DNA of 30,204 bases, from IMG/VR virus record IMGVR_UViG_3300037248_000234, positions 1 to 30,204 of that record; one strand, written 5' to 3'. This stretch comes from a virus. Position numbers and translations under genes: made by a program. Under the pieces are notes generated by a model. The model was not told the DNA's origin, did not search any database, and worked only from the letters and a program-made list of their open reading frames with translations. Below, piece by piece: positions 1,767 to 8,687 of the stretch (within the stretch, counting starts at the first letter, position 1; the number at the start of each line of letters is the position of its first letter).

Positions 1767-4046
1767 ATGCGCCCTGACCGGCTGTTCGGCGATGTGCTGA
1801 CGATGAGAGTGCCGTCGGCTCTTCCGGCCCGGACCGCGCATGACTCGGGTGACGGGGCGGAGATACTGCACTGCCTGGAAGGTGCGACAAGATACCTTAC
1901 GCGCGATGGAGTCCGCACTCTGGCAGAGACTGCGGGCACGGCTCAGCTGGTCCTGTCGGGAGACCCGGCTGCTTCTCACGCCGGCCGGTGGACCGAGGCG
2001 GAGATCCGGGATTTCGGGATCCAGCCGCTGCGGGAAGTCGTCCTGAAGCGGAACAGGAAGCGCAAGGTAATCCGGGCTACGTCCGGGCATCGCTGGCTTG
2101 TGCGGCGGCCGGACCGGGTCCTGACGACTGATCAGCTGATCCCGGGGCACCGGCTGGCATCATTGCGCGCGCCTGCCGTCGAGCCCGCCCCCGATCATGA
2201 CGGCATCCGGATGGGCTTCGTCTTTGGCGACGGCGAGATCATGCGCCGTTCTTACGGCTCCTACGGGGCCGTGACCCTCTGGGGAAATAAGCGGGACCTG
2301 GCTAAGTACTTTGACGAGATCGGCGGCACCCCGCATGAGCGGGAGGCGCCGTCAGGGCTTCCCGGCCTGAATTATTCCGCCGGGATGCTCGGGTACTCGA
2401 AAGAGCTGCCCCCGCTGACATCATCGCCGGAATACCTGCGCGGCTGGCTGATGGGCTACTTTGCCGCTGACGGAGAGATGAGTACCACGAATGCCGGCAT
2501 CTCATCCGCTTCCCTGGAAACGCTGCTGCATGTCCGGGATATTGCGACGCTCCTGGGGATCGGGACTTACGAGCCGCTGTCACGGACGAGAACCGGGTTC
2601 GGCAGGGAATCGGCTATTCATATCGTCGGCTTTTCCCGGGCGGATCTAACGCCGGGATTCTTCCTCCGTGATGACCAGCGGGCCGAGTTTGAGCGGCACG
2701 GAGCCGGTCCTGCTCGCGAGCGGTTCGGCTGGACGGTCGAGAGCATCGGCGCTCCCGGGGAGCCTGAGACTGTCTACTGTGCTGTTGTGCCAGGATTTGA
2801 GTCCTTTACGCTTGAGGACAATATTCATACTGGTAACTGCCCGTTTTGCGGAGCTGGTCAGGTTATAGGACGATCTGACGGGACTGCGGAGTGCGAGTTC
2901 GACGGCATGTGCTTCACCGTCCAGGTCCAGCCCCGCTACCCCGGATTCCCGCAGTCGGTGAACGGCCAGCCGGTCCCGGTGCCGGGCATGCCGGGGCAGC
3001 CCGGCGGCGTGCCGGGCATCCCGCCCGCTGGCCCGGCGGCAGGCGGCGTCCCGCTGCCCGGTGAGGAGGACGGGGCGGTACCGGGGGCCGAGCCAGGCAA
3101 TGAGGGCGACGAGGGTGCAGCTCCCCCCGTAGACGGCCAGGACGCTGAAGACGATGAAAGTGATGACAAGCCGGATTTCCTGAAGAAAAGCACGCGCGGC
3201 TACCGGACAGCAGCCGGTGACATTCTTCCAGAAGATGCATATCTGCGCCACCTGGCTCTGGAAGTGGCCCCGGACCGCCAGGCCATGCTGGAAAGGCTGC
3301 GGGCGGCCAGCCGGATCACCAGGACGGCTGACAGCCTGGAGGAGCATGCGCCCGGCGGGCAGCTGACGCCGGAGCGGCAGAAGCTGCACGACTCGATCGT
3401 GTCGGGGGCCCTGGAAGGTCACGGGCGGCACGCCCATCCGGTGGCCACGTTCCTCGGCGGCGGCCCGGCCAGCGGCAAGTCCACGATCGCCGGCAACCAG
3501 CAGGACAGCGTGCACATCGACGCGGACGCGGTCAAGAAGCAGCTGCCCGATTATCATCAGAAAATAGCGGCCGGAGACAAGACCGCTGCCGCGCACGTGC
3601 ACGAGGAATCCTCGCACCTGACCCGGCGCATCATGGACGAGGCAGTGAAAGGCGGCCGCAACTTTACCCTGGACGGCACTGGCGACAGTGATTTCGCCAA
3701 GCTGAACGGGAAGATCTCCCAGGCGAAAAAGGCCGGTCATATGGTGGCGGGAAAGTACGTCACCGTTGATACCGATGAGGCGGTACGCCGGGCGAAGGCC
3801 AGGGCGGAGCGGCCGGGATCAGGATCGCACGGCCGGATGGTGCCCGAGAGCGTGATCCGGCAGACCCACAAGAACGTCAGCGGCACATTCCGGCAGGCCG
3901 TCGATCATGACGTCTTCGATTCCCTGGAACTGTGGGACAACAACGATAAAGAGCCGAGGCTCGTCGGCAGCAAGCCGCTGGGCGGCAAGTGGGCCGTGCA
4001 TGACCACCCGGCCTACCAGCGCTTCCTGGCCAAGGAGCACGAATGA
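1767..4046 (+). CDS. Zinc-ribbon / Zeta-toxin-like P-loop kinase, with intein
   Basis: Precursor of 759 residues. GAGGAGG at 1755-1761 is a strong ribosome-binding site 5 nt before the ATG. An intein occupies residues 36-357; the spliced product would be 437 residues. The joined N-terminal part makes a zinc ribbon whose first cysteine pair is CPFC (358, 361), followed by ECEF and MCF. Then comes a Pro/Gly-rich and acidic linker (about 400-470), and a C-terminal kinase domain (about 530-759) with a Walker A motif GGPASGKST (K571), an IDAD segment (D585, D587) and DGTGD (636-640). This layout matches the Zeta toxin family, whose known members phosphorylate UDP-N-acetylglucosamine. No Epsilon antitoxin is seen. 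Position just before the portal gene suggests a head-module protein. The kinase assignment is fairly sure; substrate and role are inferred. Confidence 0.85.
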   Translation: MRPDRLFGDVLTMRVPSALPARTAHDSGDGAEILHCLEGATRYLTRDGVRTLAETAGTAQLVLSGDPAASHAGRWTEAEIRDFGIQPLREVVLKRNRKRKVIRATSGHRWLVRRPDRVLTTDQLIPGHRLASLRAPAVEPAPDHDGIRMGFVFGDGEIMRRSYGSYGAVTLWGNKRDLAKYFDEIGGTPHEREAPSGLPGLNYSAGMLGYSKELPPLTSSPEYLRGWLMGYFAADGEMSTTNAGISSASLETLLHVRDIATLLGIGTYEPLSRTRTGFGRESAIHIVGFSRADLTPGFFLRDDQRAEFERHGAGPARERFGWTVESIGAPGEPETVYCAVVPGFESFTLEDNIHTGNCPFCGAGQVIGRSDGTAECEFDGMCFTVQVQPRYPGFPQSVNGQPVPVPGMPGQPGGVPGIPPAGPAAGGVPLPGEEDGAVPGAEPGNEGDEGAAPPVDGQDAEDDESDDKPDFLKKSTRGYRTAAGDILPEDAYLRHLALEVAPDRQAMLERLRAASRITRTADSLEEHAPGGQLTPERQKLHDSIVSGALEGHGRHAHPVATFLGGGPASGKSTIAGNQQDSVHIDADAVKKQLPDYHQKIAAGDKTAAAHVHEESSHLTRRIMDEAVKGGRNFTLDGTGDSDFAKLNGKISQAKKAGHMVAGKYVTVDTDEAVRRAKARAERPGSGSHGRMVPESVIRQTHKNVSGTFRQAVDHDVFDSLELWDNNDKEPRLVGSKPLGGKWAVHDHPAYQRFLAKEHE
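1872..2837 (+). mobile_element. Intein with LAGLIDADG endonuclease in the Zeta-like gene
   Basis: In-frame insertion of 322 residues (36-357). The N-terminal splice block begins CLEGATRYLTRDG; the block B Thr and His are T105 and H108 (TSGH). Two LAGLIDADG motifs, GFVFGDGE (acid D155) and LMGYFAADGE (acid D235), mark a homing endonuclease. The C-terminal block runs VYCAVVPGFESFTLEDNIHTGN, broken by Cys358 of the host protein. The final Asn357 is present, but the residue before it is Gly rather than the usual His; a His is found three residues before the Asn. Both splice junctions are Cys, as in class 1 inteins. It splits the host protein exactly before the first zinc-binding cysteine. Confidence 0.88.
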
Positions 4047-4282
4047 GCCTGGCCGTCGATCTGGAGATCGCCATCCTGTCCGGGGCCGTGGAGCTGCCGG
4101 CAAGAGTCCCGCAGACGCCGGAGAACAGGGAGCTGTTCACCCGGATCCAGAAGGAGATCGCCGACAGCCCGTACCTGCCGGATATCCCCTGGGAATATGC
4201 CGACGATAAGCCAGGGGCGCATCGCATTGGGCCTTCCGCAGGCGGACCTTCTTCAGCCCCTCCCGGCCAGGGTAGCCCGTGA
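4043..4282 (+). CDS. Small protein between Zeta-like kinase and portal, 79 aa
   Basis: Starts with an ATGA overlap on the stop of the kinase gene and ends with a GTGA overlap on the portal start, so all three are translationally coupled. The first 55 residues are well structured (helix, then TPENRELFTRIQKEIADSP, then a YLPDIPWEYADD motif); the tail is low-complexity Pro/Gly/Ser. I know similar short proteins next to actinophage portal genes but no function for them. Because it directly follows a Zeta-like kinase, a partner or antitoxin role is possible, but nothing in the sequence shows it. Confidence 0.75.
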   Translation: MSLAVDLEIAILSGAVELPARVPQTPENRELFTRIQKEIADSPYLPDIPWEYADDKPGAHRIGPSAGGPSSAPPGQGSP

Positions 4283-7200
4283 CGACGCCGGATGCCGACA
4301 AGGCCGCTTACGACCGGCACGTGATGAAGGTGCTCGGCAGCGCCGCCCGCCGTCATGGCGGGCACGCTGACGCGGTGCCGCGCCCCGGCTCGCCCGAGCC
4401 CGTGGATGACCCCTCGGTCGCCGAGGCCGTGCGGAACCGGCGGGTGAACGGAGGGCGCGCGAGCGCCATGCGCCGCGCTGCCTCCTCGGGCAACTGGAAC
4501 GGCCAGGGCGGCTCGGGCGGCACGGGCGGCTTCGATCTCCAGTTCGCTACCGGCCGCCCGCGCGACCCGCTGTTCTACTGGCGCCAGAATAACCTTCCGT
4601 ACGATTTTGCCGATAATGAGGAACTTACTAAGGTAAGAGCTTTTTGTCGTCTCCTGTACCAGACTGATCCGATCATCGGCTCGTGCGTCGACATTTTCAG
4701 CAAGCTCCCGATCGCGGGCATGGAGCTGGTCAGCAAGGACCCGAAGCTGAAGGAGTTCTACGACGAGCTGTTCTTCGGCGACGACGAGGGCCTCGACTAT
4801 GAGGAATTCTTCGTTGACATGGGCCGGGAGTACTACACCTGCGCCCTCCCTGGCGAGTTGATACAGTCGAGCATGGGAAGTGTGGCTGTTCAGGACATTC
4901 CAGTCGGAAGCGAGGTACTCACCCACAAGGGCCGCTGGCGCCGGGTAGTCCGCTCCATGGGCAGGCACTACGAGGGCCGGGTTTTCACAGTGCGCCCTCG
5001 TTACGGCATGCCCATCAGGTTCACCGAGGGACACCAGTTCCTCGTGCGGCGCTCCGGCGCCGAGTCCTGGATGAACATCGAGGACGTTGACCCGGGCACT
5101 GACGAGCTGTTCGTCCCGGTGGACAAGACGAGCCAGGACAAGCGCACTGCCTCAGTATGGGAGTCGCTTGACCCTGATGCCTGGGAGACGTTCGACCCGT
5201 ACCGGGATGATGACCCGGAGTGGACTCCGCGCTACGCCAAATTCCAGCGTGAGCGCCGTAAGCGGATGCTGCACCAGGGGATCGCCTCCGGTACGCTCCT
5301 GCGCCCGGCATCCGATAGCGGAGCACGGGGCCGCTACTCACCGCTGGCGCCCGCGCACGAGCTGACGGACGATCTGCTGCGCCTTTTCGGCCTTTACCTG
5401 GCAGAGGGGAGTGCGGACAGGAACGGCGCGCACTGGGCTTACAGCGACCAGGAACAGCATCTTGTAAACGAGACGATCCAGACCGTCAAGCAGGCGTTCG
5501 GGTTGGAAGCGAAGGTCTCTAAGGTCCAGGCGCACCGCGTCCGGGTAAGCGCCGGCAACCGGACCCTGGGAGCATGGTTCGAGTCGCTCTTCGGCAAGGG
5601 CGCCAAGAACAAGCGCATGCCAGGCTGGATGCTCCGCCTTCCGCCGGGGCGCGCTGCGTTCGTGCTCGACGGCCTGTTCGAGGGGGACGGGCACGCGGCG
5701 CACCCGGAGGGCTCGACGTTCCGGGCCTCCTACAAGCTGACCACCTCCTCCCCAGGGCTTCGCGACGGGGCCGCCCTCCTGATCCGGCGCGCTGGTCTCG
5801 TCTCGGTGATCAGTGAGATGAGTTCCAGCACCGGGCCGTGGTGGCTCGTCTCCCCGGCGCAGGCCCAGACCCGGAAGTTCGCCCGTTACCTCGGCTGGGA
5901 CAGCGCGAGGGTGACCGCCGTATTCGGGCACGGCCGGGACACGGAACCGGTCTACGCCAGGTACGCCGAGAACGGCTACTGGGTCCGGGTGCACCGGCTG
6001 CTGCCCGAGCACTATGAGGGGCAGGTCTACGACCTGACAGTCGAGGAGGACTCCTCGTTCACCTGCCAGGTAGCCGTGCACAATTGCGGCGAGGCGTGGC
6101 CTTTCGCGACATTCAATGAGGACCTCGGCATCTGGGATGATGAGGAGCTGCTGGCCCCCGAGGACATCAAGGCCGAGCGCAGTCCTTTCCTGCGGGAGCC
6201 CCGGTATTTCATAAAACTCCCGCAGGCAATCCGCGAGGTCCTGCGCACCCGGCGCCCGGTGTGGGAATACGAGAAGCTGGTCAGCGCCTATCCCGAGCTG
6301 ATCGCCTATGTCTCCGACAATTCTTTCATGCCGGTGTCCTCTGTTCTCCTGCGGCAGCTGAAATTCAAGGGAGACACATTCAATATCCGGGGGATCCCGC
6401 TGCTGACCCGGGCCATGCGCTCGGTGCTCCAGCAGGAGATGCTGAACAGCGCGCTCGACTCGATCGCCGACCGCATGTACACCCCGCTGGTCCTCTTCAA
6501 GCTCGGCGCCTCGGCCAGCGACCTCGGCACCGAGGTCCCCTGGATCCCGACCGAGGACGACCTGGGCGACTTCCAGGAGGCCACCGACGCCGCCCTGGCC
6601 GCCGACTTCCGGGCGATCTTCTACAACTTCGCCGTCGAGACCGAGCTGGTGTTCGGCCGCGAGCAGATGCCGGACCTGACCGCTGACTTCGAGCGGATCG
6701 AGGACCGGATACTGCAGACGTTCGGGCTAAGCCGTACATTCCTGACCGGGGCGGGCGCCGGAGAGACGTATGCCGCAGATGCCCTGAACAAGGAGCTAAT
6801 CAGTCAGCTCATGACAAGGTACCAGAAGATCCTGCGCCGGCACTACCGGCAGCGGGCCCTGATCGTCGCCGAGGCGCAGGAGCACTACGACTACGATCTG
6901 CGCAACGGCCAGCGGTACGTGCGGATCGAGGAGGTCCTGGAGACCGACGAGGAGACCGGCGAGCAGAAGATCGTCGAGCAGCCCAAGCTGCTGATCCCCG
7001 AGCTGAACTTCCCGGTCATGGACTTCCGCAACGAGGACAGCGTGCGGGCGCTGATCGAGGGGCTGCACATGTCCGGCGTCGCCATCTCGCGGCGCACCCG
7101 GATGCGCGGGCTGCCGGTCGACCTGGACGAGGAAGCCGAGGCCTGCCAGGCCGAGGCCATCCAGATGGCGGTCATGGAGCAGGAGACCCGCAAGGGCATC

Positions 7201-7761
7201 TACCGGGCGCTGCGTGACCAGGGCCTGCCGGTGCCCGACGACCTGAAGCAGGACTTTACCGCGCTGCCCGTGCAGAACCAGGACCCGTCGGCGGCCGTGA
7301 TGGCGCGCACCCCGCAGCTGGGCCAGGACCCGACGCTGGGAGACCTTCTCCCCAACATGGCACCGACGCCGGAGGACCTGGCGATGGTGCCGCCCGACCA
7401 GGACCCGCCGGGCATGCCGCCGCCGCCGGAGGGCGGGGCCCCGGGCGGGGTCCCGCAGCCCCCCGGCCAGGGCATCCCGCAGGTGCCGCCCGAGAGCAAT
7501 GAGCAGAGGCCGGGCATGCCGACAGCAGCAGCACTGTTCCGCCGGTCCGCCGCCGCGCGCGCGTACGCGCGGCAGCACCCGGTCCCGCACCTGCCCTCGA
7601 TCGAGGGGGAGGGCGGCACCCGCGTCTTCGATACCGACAGCGCCGAGCCGTTCGGTGCCTGGGCGGCGCCCCGCCATGTGGGCCGCCGCCGTCACTTCAC
7701 CACGGCCGGCCCGGGCAGTCTCCTGCCGGAGTACGACAAGGTCCCGGAGGATCCGGAGTAG
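4279..7761 (+). CDS. Portal protein with intein
   Basis: Precursor of 1160 residues starting at GTG 4279. An intein covers residues 188-602, leaving a 745-residue portal after splicing. The extein contains the typical actinophage portal text: DPLFYWRQNNLPYDF near residue 96, an alpha/beta core with QTDPIIGSCVDIF, GEAWPFATFNEDLG just after the intein, then GIPLLTRAMRSVLQQEML and FGLSRTFLTG. The portal forms the dodecameric ring through which DNA is packaged and to which the tail attaches. The last 200 residues are Pro/Gly/Gln-rich and probably disordered, ending in a basic-aromatic segment. It sits upstream of the protease and capsid genes, as expected. The assignment is strong from the overall pattern, although no single catalytic motif exists for this family. 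Confidence 0.9.
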   Translation: MTTPDADKAAYDRHVMKVLGSAARRHGGHADAVPRPGSPEPVDDPSVAEAVRNRRVNGGRASAMRRAASSGNWNGQGGSGGTGGFDLQFATGRPRDPLFYWRQNNLPYDFADNEELTKVRAFCRLLYQTDPIIGSCVDIFSKLPIAGMELVSKDPKLKEFYDELFFGDDEGLDYEEFFVDMGREYYTCALPGELIQSSMGSVAVQDIPVGSEVLTHKGRWRRVVRSMGRHYEGRVFTVRPRYGMPIRFTEGHQFLVRRSGAESWMNIEDVDPGTDELFVPVDKTSQDKRTASVWESLDPDAWETFDPYRDDDPEWTPRYAKFQRERRKRMLHQGIASGTLLRPASDSGARGRYSPLAPAHELTDDLLRLFGLYLAEGSADRNGAHWAYSDQEQHLVNETIQTVKQAFGLEAKVSKVQAHRVRVSAGNRTLGAWFESLFGKGAKNKRMPGWMLRLPPGRAAFVLDGLFEGDGHAAHPEGSTFRASYKLTTSSPGLRDGAALLIRRAGLVSVISEMSSSTGPWWLVSPAQAQTRKFARYLGWDSARVTAVFGHGRDTEPVYARYAENGYWVRVHRLLPEHYEGQVYDLTVEEDSSFTCQVAVHNCGEAWPFATFNEDLGIWDDEELLAPEDIKAERSPFLREPRYFIKLPQAIREVLRTRRPVWEYEKLVSAYPELIAYVSDNSFMPVSSVLLRQLKFKGDTFNIRGIPLLTRAMRSVLQQEMLNSALDSIADRMYTPLVLFKLGASASDLGTEVPWIPTEDDLGDFQEATDAALAADFRAIFYNFAVETELVFGREQMPDLTADFERIEDRILQTFGLSRTFLTGAGAGETYAADALNKELISQLMTRYQKILRRHYRQRALIVAEAQEHYDYDLRNGQRYVRIEEVLETDEETGEQKIVEQPKLLIPELNFPVMDFRNEDSVRALIEGLHMSGVAISRRTRMRGLPVDLDEEAEACQAEAIQMAVMEQETRKGIYRALRDQGLPVPDDLKQDFTALPVQNQDPSAAVMARTPQLGQDPTLGDLLPNMAPTPEDLAMVPPDQDPPGMPPPPEGGAPGGVPQPPGQGIPQVPPESNEQRPGMPTAAALFRRSAAARAYARQHPVPHLPSIEGEGGTRVFDTDSAEPFGAWAAPRHVGRRRHFTTAGPGSLLPEYDKVPEDPE
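4840..6084 (+). mobile_element. Intein with LAGLIDADG endonuclease in the portal gene
   Basis: Insertion of 415 residues (188-602) between YYT and CGEAWPF. Block A begins CALPGELIQSSMG; block B has T249 and H252 (TEGH). Two LAGLIDADG motifs, LFGLYLAEG (E376) and LDGLFEGDG (D470), indicate a probably active homing endonuclease. The C-terminal end is VYDLTVEEDSSFTCQVAVHN with the canonical His-Asn pair followed by Cys603. It does not resemble the intein in the Zeta-like gene apart from the family motifs, so the two were probably acquired independently. Both splice junctions and the DOD motifs look intact. Confidence 0.92.
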
Positions 7762-7772
7762 GCTGGGCCTGT

Positions 7773-7841
7773 GCAGGAGGTCGCGGGGCACAAACCCGCT
7801 CCGGTGCTCATACCACCGGGTAGCTCAGGAAGAGCACCTGC
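7773..7841 (+). ncRNA. tRNA-like cloverleaf in circularly permuted order (candidate)
   Basis: Read in order: GCAGG (3' strand of an anticodon stem, 7773-7777), variable loop AGGTC (7778-7782), a 5-bp stem with 7-nt loop like a T arm (7783-7799), TCCGGTG (7800-7806), a 7-nt linker (7807-7813), CACCGGG (7814-7820) pairing fully with TCCGGTG as an acceptor stem with one G-T pair, TA, a D arm GCTC/GAGC with 5-nt loop (7823-7835), A, and CCTGC (7837-7841), which pairs perfectly with the opening GCAGG. All helix lengths and spacings equal those of a tRNA, but the 3' half precedes the 5' half. Weak points: the T loop is GCACAAA without the TTC signature, the D loop is short, and position 33 would not be T. 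The linker CTCATAC itself looks like a Met anticodon loop, so a degenerate normal-order fold is the rival reading. Confidence 0.5.
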
Positions 7842-7891
7842 GGGCAGCCGTCCCTGGCCGGGCGTGCACCCTGGCTAAGGCGGCTGCGCAG

Positions 7892-7965
7892 CGCGGGGTG
7901 GAGCAGTTCGGCAGCTCGCCGGGCTCATAACCCGGAGGTCACGAGTTCAAATCTCGTCCCCGCTA
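7892..7965 (+). tRNA. Initiator tRNA, anticodon CAT (tRNA-fMet)
   Basis: Complete cloverleaf of 74 nt without encoded CCA. Acceptor strands CGCGGGG (7892-7898) and CCCCGCT (7958-7964) leave the first pair (C1 with T72) unpaired, a hallmark of bacterial initiator tRNA. The D stem is GAGC/GCTC. The anticodon arm CCGGG-CTCATAA-CCCGG carries the three consecutive G-C pairs typical of initiators. The variable loop is AGGTC and the T arm is ACGAG-TTCAAAT-CTCGT. It closely resembles the actinobacterial initiator tRNA. It lies 130 bp after the portal gene with no other tRNA of standard order near it. Confidence 0.93.
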
Positions 7966-8029
7966 CGAGGGCCGGCCGTCTCCCTCACCCCAAGACGGCA
8001 AGTACGGGGCTGATCATCCCGTGCGGCGG

Positions 8030-8066
8030 GAGGCCGGGAGCGGGATCGGGTGCTGCTCCCGGCCTC
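8030..8066. terminator. Bidirectional terminator hairpin
   Basis: Perfect 12-bp inverted repeat GAGGCCGGGAGC (8030-8041) and GCTCCCGGCCTC (8055-8066) with a 13-nt loop, followed by a pyrimidine-rich TTCCTGTCT on the plus strand. It lies between the rightward tRNA gene and the convergent end of the BldC-like gene, so it can end both transcripts. Confidence 0.75.
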
Positions 8067-8073
8067 TTCCTGT

Positions 8074-8268
8074 CTAGTGCGGCAGCGGCACGCCGTTCAG
8101 GATGGCGCGGACCTCGGATTCCCGGTAGCGGCGGTGGCCGCCGAGCGTCCGGATCGAGGTGAGCTTGCCGGCTTTCGCCCACCGGGTGACCGTTTTCGGG
8201 TCAACCCTGAACATGGCGGCGACCTCTGCCGGCGTGAGCAGAGCCTCGGACTCGACTGTGCGTGGCAT
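8074..8268 (-). CDS. bldC: BldC-like MerR-family DNA-binding regulator, 64 aa
   Basis: A 64-residue protein that is almost a single winged-helix domain: LLTPAEVAAMFRVDPKTVT, then RWAKAGKLTSIRTLGGHRRY, then a short C-terminal helix. Through this core it is nearly the same as the host regulator BldC (about 68 residues), which binds promoter DNA as head-to-tail repeats and controls development in Streptomyces. I chose the ATG at 8268 because AAAGGA lies just upstream and the protein then begins like BldC; an upstream in-frame ATG at 8319 would add 17 unlike residues. It is transcribed leftward, divergent from the 8409 gene, with a 140-bp shared regulatory gap, and ends against the terminator hairpin. 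It may control phage or host promoters; targets are unknown. Excisionases have a related fold, but the match is to BldC. Confidence 0.9.
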   Translation of the reverse strand: MPRTVESEALLTPAEVAAMFRVDPKTVTRWAKAGKLTSIRTLGGHRRYRESEVRAILNGVPLPH

Positions 8269-8371
8269 GAGCTGTCCTTTCCTCGTCCCGATGGTGACTC
8301 TAACGGCACAGCCTGCCACGGCAGTACTGATTCGGAAAAGGCGTCCGTGGTACTACATGATGGCCGGGACC

Positions 8372-8400
8372 TTTGCACCCGGTAATGGTTGTGCTAGCTT
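8372..8400 (+). promoter_or_regulatory. Promoter of the 8409 gene, divergent from the BldC-like gene
   Basis: TTTGCA (8372-8377), a 17-bp spacer and TAGCTT (8395-8400), eight bases before an ATG at 8409. The -35 matches four of six consensus bases. The resulting transcript would have almost no leader before 8409, or a 35-nt leader before the ATG at 8442. Confidence 0.4.
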
Positions 8401-8408
8401 CCTGGGTC

Positions 8409-8687
8409 ATGAGGAGAATCTGCCCGGAGGAGCCGTCCTCCATGGTCCGGATCCTGGCGCCCGGCGAGGCCCCCTCGCAGGAGCTGCTGCCGCTGACACT
8501 GCGCCGGGGCGGCAGCACGCTCTGCTGGCGCCCCGAGCAGCGCGGGATGAAAGTCCACGTCAGCGTCTGGCCGGCCGAGTCCGGCCCGGGCCCGGCGCTG
8601 GGCCGCCTGGTGATGACCCTGGCCCAGTGGCTCGACCTGGCCGCGCTGCTGCACGACAATGGCGGGCATGGAGTTCCTGGCCCGTAA
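8409..8687 (+). CDS. Hypothetical protein, 92 aa (81 aa from a second start)
   Basis: Small soluble protein: beta-rich N-terminal half (LLPLTLRRGGSTLCWRP, MKVHVSVWPAE), then an amphipathic helix (LVMTLAQWLDLAALLHDN). No family recognised. Two starts are possible. ATG 8409 lies directly downstream of a promoter and would be nearly leaderless. ATG 8442 has GGAGGAG (8426-8432) upstream, but this purine run is locked in a perfect hairpin GGAGGA-GCCG-TCCTCC (8426-8441) that ends at the ATG. The gene overlaps the next one by 29 bp. Confidence 0.65.
   Translation: MRRICPEEPSSMVRILAPGEAPSQELLPLTLRRGGSTLCWRPEQRGMKVHVSVWPAESGPGPALGRLVMTLAQWLDLAALLHDNGGHGVPGP

What the first reader, a model, noticed from the sequence alone, without database searches (positions are those of the whole stretch)
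7761..7887. Candidate circularly permuted tRNA gene next to the initiator tRNA
Seen in sequence: from 7773 to 7841 four helices occur with exactly tRNA lengths and spacings, but the 3' half (anticodon-stem strand GCAGG, variable AGGTC, 5-bp T-like arm, acceptor strand TCCGGTG) precedes the 5' half (acceptor CACCGGG, TA, D arm, A, anticodon-stem strand CCTGC). Acceptor strands pair 7 of 7, anticodon strands 5 of 5, T stem 5 of 5, D stem 4 of 4. GGCTG (7761-7765) can also pair with CAGCC (7845-7849), an outer helix joining leader and trailer; alternatively GCAGCCG (7844-7850) pairs with CGGCTGC (7881-7887). Permuted tRNA genes are known in some archaea and algae; I know of none established in phages. 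Against it: T loop lacks TTC, the D loop has 5 nt, and position 33 is not T. The 7-nt linker CTCATAC resembles a Met anticodon loop, so a degenerate normal-order cloverleaf using the same helices is the main rival.
Basis: partly seen in the sequence, partly recalled or inferred. Interest (0 to 1): 0.85.

Follow-up and report, generated by a model that had tools for sequence, protein, structure and literature searches.

The report
Y RNA-like tRNA mimic in phage
A soil phage carries, next to its initiator tRNA gene, a small RNA that folds like a tRNA with its two halves swapped; it is very probably not a permuted tRNA gene but a divergent copy of a known class of tRNA-imitating RNAs (bacterial Y RNA, YrlA type).

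Summary
The four helices (7/7, 5/5, 5/5, 4/4) sit exactly where stated, and no other place in the window shows them all. Shuffled windows give 0.018 such sites per strand, and 0 in 400 shuffles when T8, R9, A14 and R26 are also required. 3' half first, acceptor stem closed by a short loop, 5' half last is the known architecture of the tRNA-like domain of bacterial Y RNA (Rfam YrlA, RF02553), whose crystal structure matches tRNA by circular permutation. Rfam's best match here is YrlA. Phages with related portal genes carry isolated YrlA-like RNAs, several beside a Ro (TROVE) gene. A covariance model built from them, without the window, hits 7773-7841 at 39.9 bits (E 7e-11), and their helices covary strongly. 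The window copy is unusual: no TTC in the T loop, a 5-nt D loop, no Ro-side motif, only an 8-bp bulged extension stem, and no TROVE gene in the 30-kb fragment. It resembles Ro-less modules of other soil phages. There is no anticodon loop and no bulge-helix-bulge. Verdict: a divergent variant of a known kind.

The parts
7761..7772 (+). 5' strand of the outer stem, GGCT-gg-GCCT-gt; pairs with 7842-7849 (8 bp, two 2-nt bulges on this strand)
   Evidence: MFE and centroid fold of 7761-7849; the whole 89-nt fold has z only -1.7, and the 3' strand competes with the hairpin 7844-7887
7773..7841 (+). YrlA-type permuted tRNA-like module (whole)
   Evidence: helices; Rfam YrlA 20.3 bits, E 0.03 in a 156-base search; phage YrlA model R1 39.9 bits, E 6.6e-11
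7773..7777 (+). anticodon-stem-like 3' strand GCAGG, pairs with 7837-7841
7783..7799 (+). T-like arm, 5 bp, loop GCACAAA (no TTC)
   Evidence: stem 100% paired in 13 aligned modules
7800..7820 (+). closed acceptor-like hairpin TCCGGTG-CTCATAC-CACCGGG
   Evidence: helix 97.8% paired with both-side changes at 6 of 7 pairs
7821..7836 (+). TA, D-like arm GCTC-AGGAA-GAGC (5-nt loop), A26
7837..7841 (+). anticodon-stem-like 5' strand CCTGC
7842..7849 (+). 3' strand of the outer stem, GGGCAGCC
7844..7887 (+). strong imperfect hairpin between module and tRNA; alternative to the outer stem
   Evidence: -31.6 kcal/mol, z -3.3, 0 of 200 shuffles as good for 7843-7888
7892..7966 (+). initiator-type tRNA-Met (CAT)
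   Evidence: ARAGORN; Rfam tRNA 60.8 bits

Best explanation
The element is a noncoding RNA whose core is the tRNA-like module of the YrlA class of bacterial Y RNAs: a T-like arm, a closed acceptor-like hairpin and a D-like arm, held together by an anticodon-like stem that opens into an outer stem instead of an anticodon loop. Shown: sequence, predicted fold, kinship with covarying YrlA-like RNAs of related phages. Inferred: it is made in the transcript that also carries the initiator tRNA (RNase P cleavage at 7892 would free its 3' side), stays a linear RNA of about 90-130 nt, and works by looking like a tRNA to proteins. In known YrlA the stem holds Ro/Rsr and the tRNA-like domain contacts PNPase. 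Here neither the Ro-side motif nor a Ro gene is seen, so it most likely acts as a bare tRNA mimic, or is a decaying copy; the data do not decide between these two.
For: Rfam's best family for 7740-7895 is YrlA, aligned over its tRNA-like domain. A covariance model of 12 YrlA-like modules from portal-related phages, window excluded, hits 7773-7841 at 39.9 bits, E 6.6e-11; next best in the window 17.7 bits. About 1.1 Mb of related phage records give no match at E 0.01. With the window, 17 of 21 pairs change on both sides, covariation 0.726 against 0.226 for shuffles and at most 0.216 slid. Relatives lie next to TROVE genes in G016, G021, G029, G031 and Erdmann, and Rfam calls them YrlA too. YrlA is described as a tRNA mimic with circular permutation (PMC11472068; PMC8394870). 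Myrna and Erdmann also carry a module directly after tRNA-fMet. Ro-less modules with a 5-nt D loop exist in G007, G012, G013, G020 and G028.
Against: Rfam score 20.3 is far below the gathering cut-off of 69, though the Ro-linked relatives also miss it. T loop GCACAAA and D loop AGGAA lack U, so the elbow and the TruB/Dus sites of YrlA cannot form. No Ro-side motif. No TROVE or RtcB in the 30-kb fragment. The outer stem rests on one sequence and competes with a strong hairpin. R1 also scores tRNA-tRNA junctions. No close homologue was found, so covariation is shown for the family, not for close kin of this copy. No expression data.
Confidence: 0.78

Rival explanations
1. Circularly permuted tRNA gene: the termini are cut and joined at the anticodon loop to give a circle, then RNase P and tRNase Z open the acceptor end.
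For: Helix lengths and spacings are exactly those of tRNA, with T8, A9, A14, A26; it lies beside a tRNA gene.
Against: No bulge-helix-bulge: the two bulges are on the same strand and 2 nt long. No T33, no TTC, no encoded anticodon loop. Known permuted tRNA genes (34 in six algae and one archaeon in the 2014 review) rely on the BHB splicing system (PMC3978253). No RtcB in the fragment. The YrlA class explains the same order without splicing.
Confidence: 0.05
2. Decayed remnant of tandemly duplicated tRNAs: the 3' half of one copy followed by the 5' half of the next, outer halves lost. No function.
For: Tandem tRNA junctions in related phages do match YrlA-type models; the T loop has lost TTC.
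Against: No trace of the missing halves: no tRNA match in 7740-7895 at E 10. All 21 pairs are intact, and the same unit occurs as stand-alone modules with compensatory changes in relatives.
Confidence: 0.09
3. Chance fold in GC-rich DNA, or a leader and processing signal of the initiator tRNA with no tRNA mimicry.
For: GC-rich sequence gives stable helices; module and hairpin lie directly upstream of the tRNA.
Against: 0.0175 full helix sets per shuffled strand and 0 in 400 shuffles with tRNA-specific bases; model score far above the rest of the window.
Confidence: 0.06

Closest known systems
YrlA bacterial Y RNA (Rfam RF02553; Salmonella YrlA, PDB 6CU1)
   Same: Order T-arm, closed acceptor-like hairpin, TA, D-arm inside an anticodon-like stem; same lengths; Rfam's best match
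   Different: No TTC, 5-nt D loop, no U in either loop, short bulged outer stem, no Ro-side motif, score below cut-off, no TROVE gene in the fragment
YrlA-like RNAs of related soil phages and of mycobacteriophages Myrna and Erdmann
   Same: Same module; 39.9 bits with their model; Myrna and Erdmann also have one beside tRNA-fMet
   Different: Ro-linked copies carry TTC and mostly a GG-TAC-type motif on the 5' arm; the window does not
Ro-less tandem modules of G007, G012, G013, G020, G028
   Same: 5-nt D loop (AGGGA, AAGGA), T loop off consensus in two of them, no TROVE detected, bulges mainly on the 5' strand of the outer stem
   Different: They come in pairs about 80 nt apart and have longer outer arms; the window has one module followed by tRNA-fMet
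Circularly permuted tRNA genes of algae and archaea
   Same: 3' half before 5' half
   Different: No bulge-helix-bulge, no anticodon loop, no T33, no TTC, not a splicing substrate as far as seen

Membership tests
YrlA / bacterial Y RNA | tRNA-like domain in permuted order with T, acceptor-like, D and anticodon-like helices | tested here: met
YrlA / bacterial Y RNA | Rfam gathering score (69 bits) | tested here: not met
   20.3 bits; the Ro-linked relatives reach only 33-40
YrlA / bacterial Y RNA | T loop with TTC and D loop with U (TruB and Dus sites) | tested here: not met
   GCACAAA and AGGAA
YrlA / bacterial Y RNA | basal stem formed by the 5' and 3' ends, with Ro/Rsr-binding element | tested here: inconclusive
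   8-bp bulged extension possible but it competes with hairpin 7844-7887; the motif seen at most Ro-linked copies is absent
YrlA / bacterial Y RNA | Ro/Rsr (TROVE) gene in the genome | tested here: inconclusive
   none in the 30-kb fragment; most of the genome is missing
YrlA / bacterial Y RNA | binds Ro/Rsr and PNPase | not testable with these tools
   needs binding assays
Circularly permuted tRNA gene | bulge-helix-bulge at the half junction | tested here: not met
   bulges 2 nt and both on the 5' strand
Circularly permuted tRNA gene | anticodon loop with T33 after joining of the halves | tested here: not met
   flanks GGCCTGT and GGGCAGC give no 7-nt loop with T at position 33 (sequence)
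Circularly permuted tRNA gene | circular intermediate and mature tRNA | not testable with these tools
   needs RNA sequencing
Normal-order tRNA | match to the tRNA covariance model | tested here: not met
   no RF00005 match in 7740-7895 at E 10; ARAGORN finds only 7892-7966

The most novel reading that the evidence does not exclude
The window belongs to a group of Ro-independent, YrlA-shaped tRNA mimics that large soil phages carry in or beside their tRNA genes, sometimes as two back-to-back modules packed between tRNAs with 1-3 nt spacers, acting as bare decoys or adaptors for tRNA-binding or tRNA-cutting proteins rather than as Ro-bound Y RNAs.
Probability: 0.3. Interest if true: 0.6.

Novelty: new variant of a known kind. 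Interest (0 to 1): 0.38.

Why it matters
It replaces a would-be first phage permuted tRNA gene by a known explanation and gives a practical rule: in tRNA-rich phages a 'permuted tRNA' should first be checked against YrlA. The Ro-less copies beside tRNA genes raise a testable question: can the tRNA-like half of a Y RNA work without Ro, for instance as a competitive inhibitor of an anticodon nuclease, an idea raised for YrlA in PMC7790460.

Tried and rejected
Exact-pattern scans of IMG/VR for close copies: none for the acceptor-linker-D-arm string; the 5-nt D-loop pattern gave three YrlA-like loci already known and one genuine tRNA-Gly. BLAST of 7750-7891 against phages: only chance matches. Relatives of the downstream 1086-aa ORF: none confirmed. 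Portal in genome contigs: one MAG contig at 34% identity. Un-permuted versions with various anticodon loops fed to ARAGORN: called in the intended orientation only after TTC was restored (the slices there were shifted by one base at the acceptor, so indicative only). Portal-nearest phages G001 and G002: the weak Rfam hit at G002 2246-2304 did not parse as a module. ORFs called beside the Ro-less pairs matched no Pfam family and did not resemble each other. A first pair count on A2 used a structure off by one column and was redone. Chen 2014, Wang 2018 and Sim & Wolin 2018 are not held, so YrlA facts come from papers citing them.

Full report
OBSERVATION. A search for the complete set (T 5/5, acceptor 7/7, D 4/4, anticodon 5/5, tRNA spacings) finds one site on the two strands of the window. 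Shuffled windows give 0.0175 sites per strand, and none in 400 shuffles once T8, R9, A14 and R26 are required. The isolated segment folds as this cloverleaf (z -3.1).

SETTING. The window is a 30,204-base virus fragment from IMG/VR. The element starts at the stop codon of a portal gene (4279-7761) and its module ends 50 nt upstream of an initiator-type tRNA-Met (7892-7966). No sigma-70-like promoter or intrinsic terminator was found at 7500-8420, so joint transcription with the tRNA is likely but inferred.

WHAT IT IS. In a relaxed Rfam scan of 7740-7895 the best family is RF02553 YrlA, aligned over model positions 23-85, the tRNA-like domain; the tRNA family does not appear at all. YrlA is a bacterial Y RNA with a basal stem that binds Ro/Rsr and a domain that copies the D, T and acceptor arms of tRNA and contacts PNPase (PMC8394870). 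Its crystal structure superposes on tRNA by circular permutation (PMC11472068).

RELATIVES. The portal protein led to 80 loci of phages in IMG/VR. YrlA searches of many of their full records and of three actinophages gave many weak hits at junctions of tandem tRNAs, and a set of stand-alone modules in stretches with no tRNA gene. In G016, G021, G029 and G031 two such modules precede a TROVE gene; in Erdmann one lies just upstream of a CDS annotated as Ro-like RNA binding protein. Rfam's best match for them is again YrlA. A covariance model from 12 modules, without the window, scores 7773-7841 at 39.9 bits, E 6.6e-11, while about 1.1 Mb of related phage records give nothing at E 0.01. Aligned with the window, 17 of 21 pairs change on both sides, and the covariation score is 0.73 against 0.23 for shuffles and 0.22 for the best slid register. 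The alignment without the window gives the same picture.

A SUBGROUP. In G007, G008, G012, G013, G020 and G028 two modules lie about 80 nt apart, with no TROVE detected in the record. The first module usually has a 5-nt D loop (AGGGA, AAGGA; G008 has 6 nt), and in two phages a T loop off consensus (CTCGATA, TCCGACT). The window (AGGAA, GCACAAA) looks most like these. A motif on the 5' arm seen at most Ro-linked copies is missing at the window and at nearly all of the paired Ro-less copies. So the tRNA-like module is shared, but the Ro half may not be.

MECHANISM. Shown: predicted fold, kinship, covariation in kin. Inferred: the RNA is freed from the tRNA transcript by RNase P cleavage at 7892, remains linear, and presents a tRNA-like surface. 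With no U in either loop, the usual T-D elbow and its modifications cannot form as in YrlA, so this copy is either a specialised variant or one that is decaying; the evidence does not decide. A permuted tRNA is unlikely: no anticodon loop, no T33, no bulge-helix-bulge, no RtcB in the fragment.

MEMBERSHIP. It works like, and is kin to, the tRNA-like module of YrlA. It is not filed as a full Y RNA, because the loop features were tested and not met and the Ro stem and Ro gene remain open.

LIMITS. E-values of the model are rough, and it also scores tRNA-tRNA junctions (up to about 44 bits); the decisive points are the complete pairing and the absence of flanking tRNA halves. Related records reach about 166 kb, so a Ro gene elsewhere in this phage is possible. 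Chen et al. 2014, which PMC12282133 cites for mycobacteriophage Y RNAs, could not be read; a YrlA in one Mycolicibacterium prophage is reported in PMC8190616.

Noticed in passing
L096 1453-1523 and 1525-1597 (minus; G004); L102 1425-1494 and 1497-1562 (minus; G006): Two YrlA-shaped permuted modules packed back to back between tRNA-Pro genes of phage tRNA arrays, with spacers of only 1-3 nt, no room for a Ro stem and no TROVE in the record. Rfam calls them YrlA, not tRNA.
   Followed up: partly
L085 12108-12177 (Myrna) and L087 12096-12175 (Erdmann): A YrlA-like module lies directly downstream of the initiator tRNA in both mycobacteriophages, unannotated in the records.
   Followed up: partly
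NC_011273.1 95152-95223 (L085 14548-14619): The annotated tRNA-Asp of phage Myrna is not found by ARAGORN and overlaps a YrlA-like module at 95187-95255; probably a mis-annotated Y RNA.
   Followed up: partly
L140, L141, L146, L147 and L145 around the modules: The Ro-less module pairs sit on long imperfect arms made of repeats such as AAGCTGAGGTTCAGGCTGAGG and AAGCTCAAGTTCAAGCTC; their role is unknown.
   Followed up: no
window 4279-7761: The portal gene seems to carry an intein: intein-splicing and LAGLIDADG matches at residues 223-602 and 462-536, with the portal homology continuing after residue 601.
   Followed up: no
window 1767-4046: ORF with a zeta-toxin/polynucleotide-kinase-like domain (residues 555-727) and a LAGLIDADG match (222-269), perhaps another intein.
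   Followed up: no
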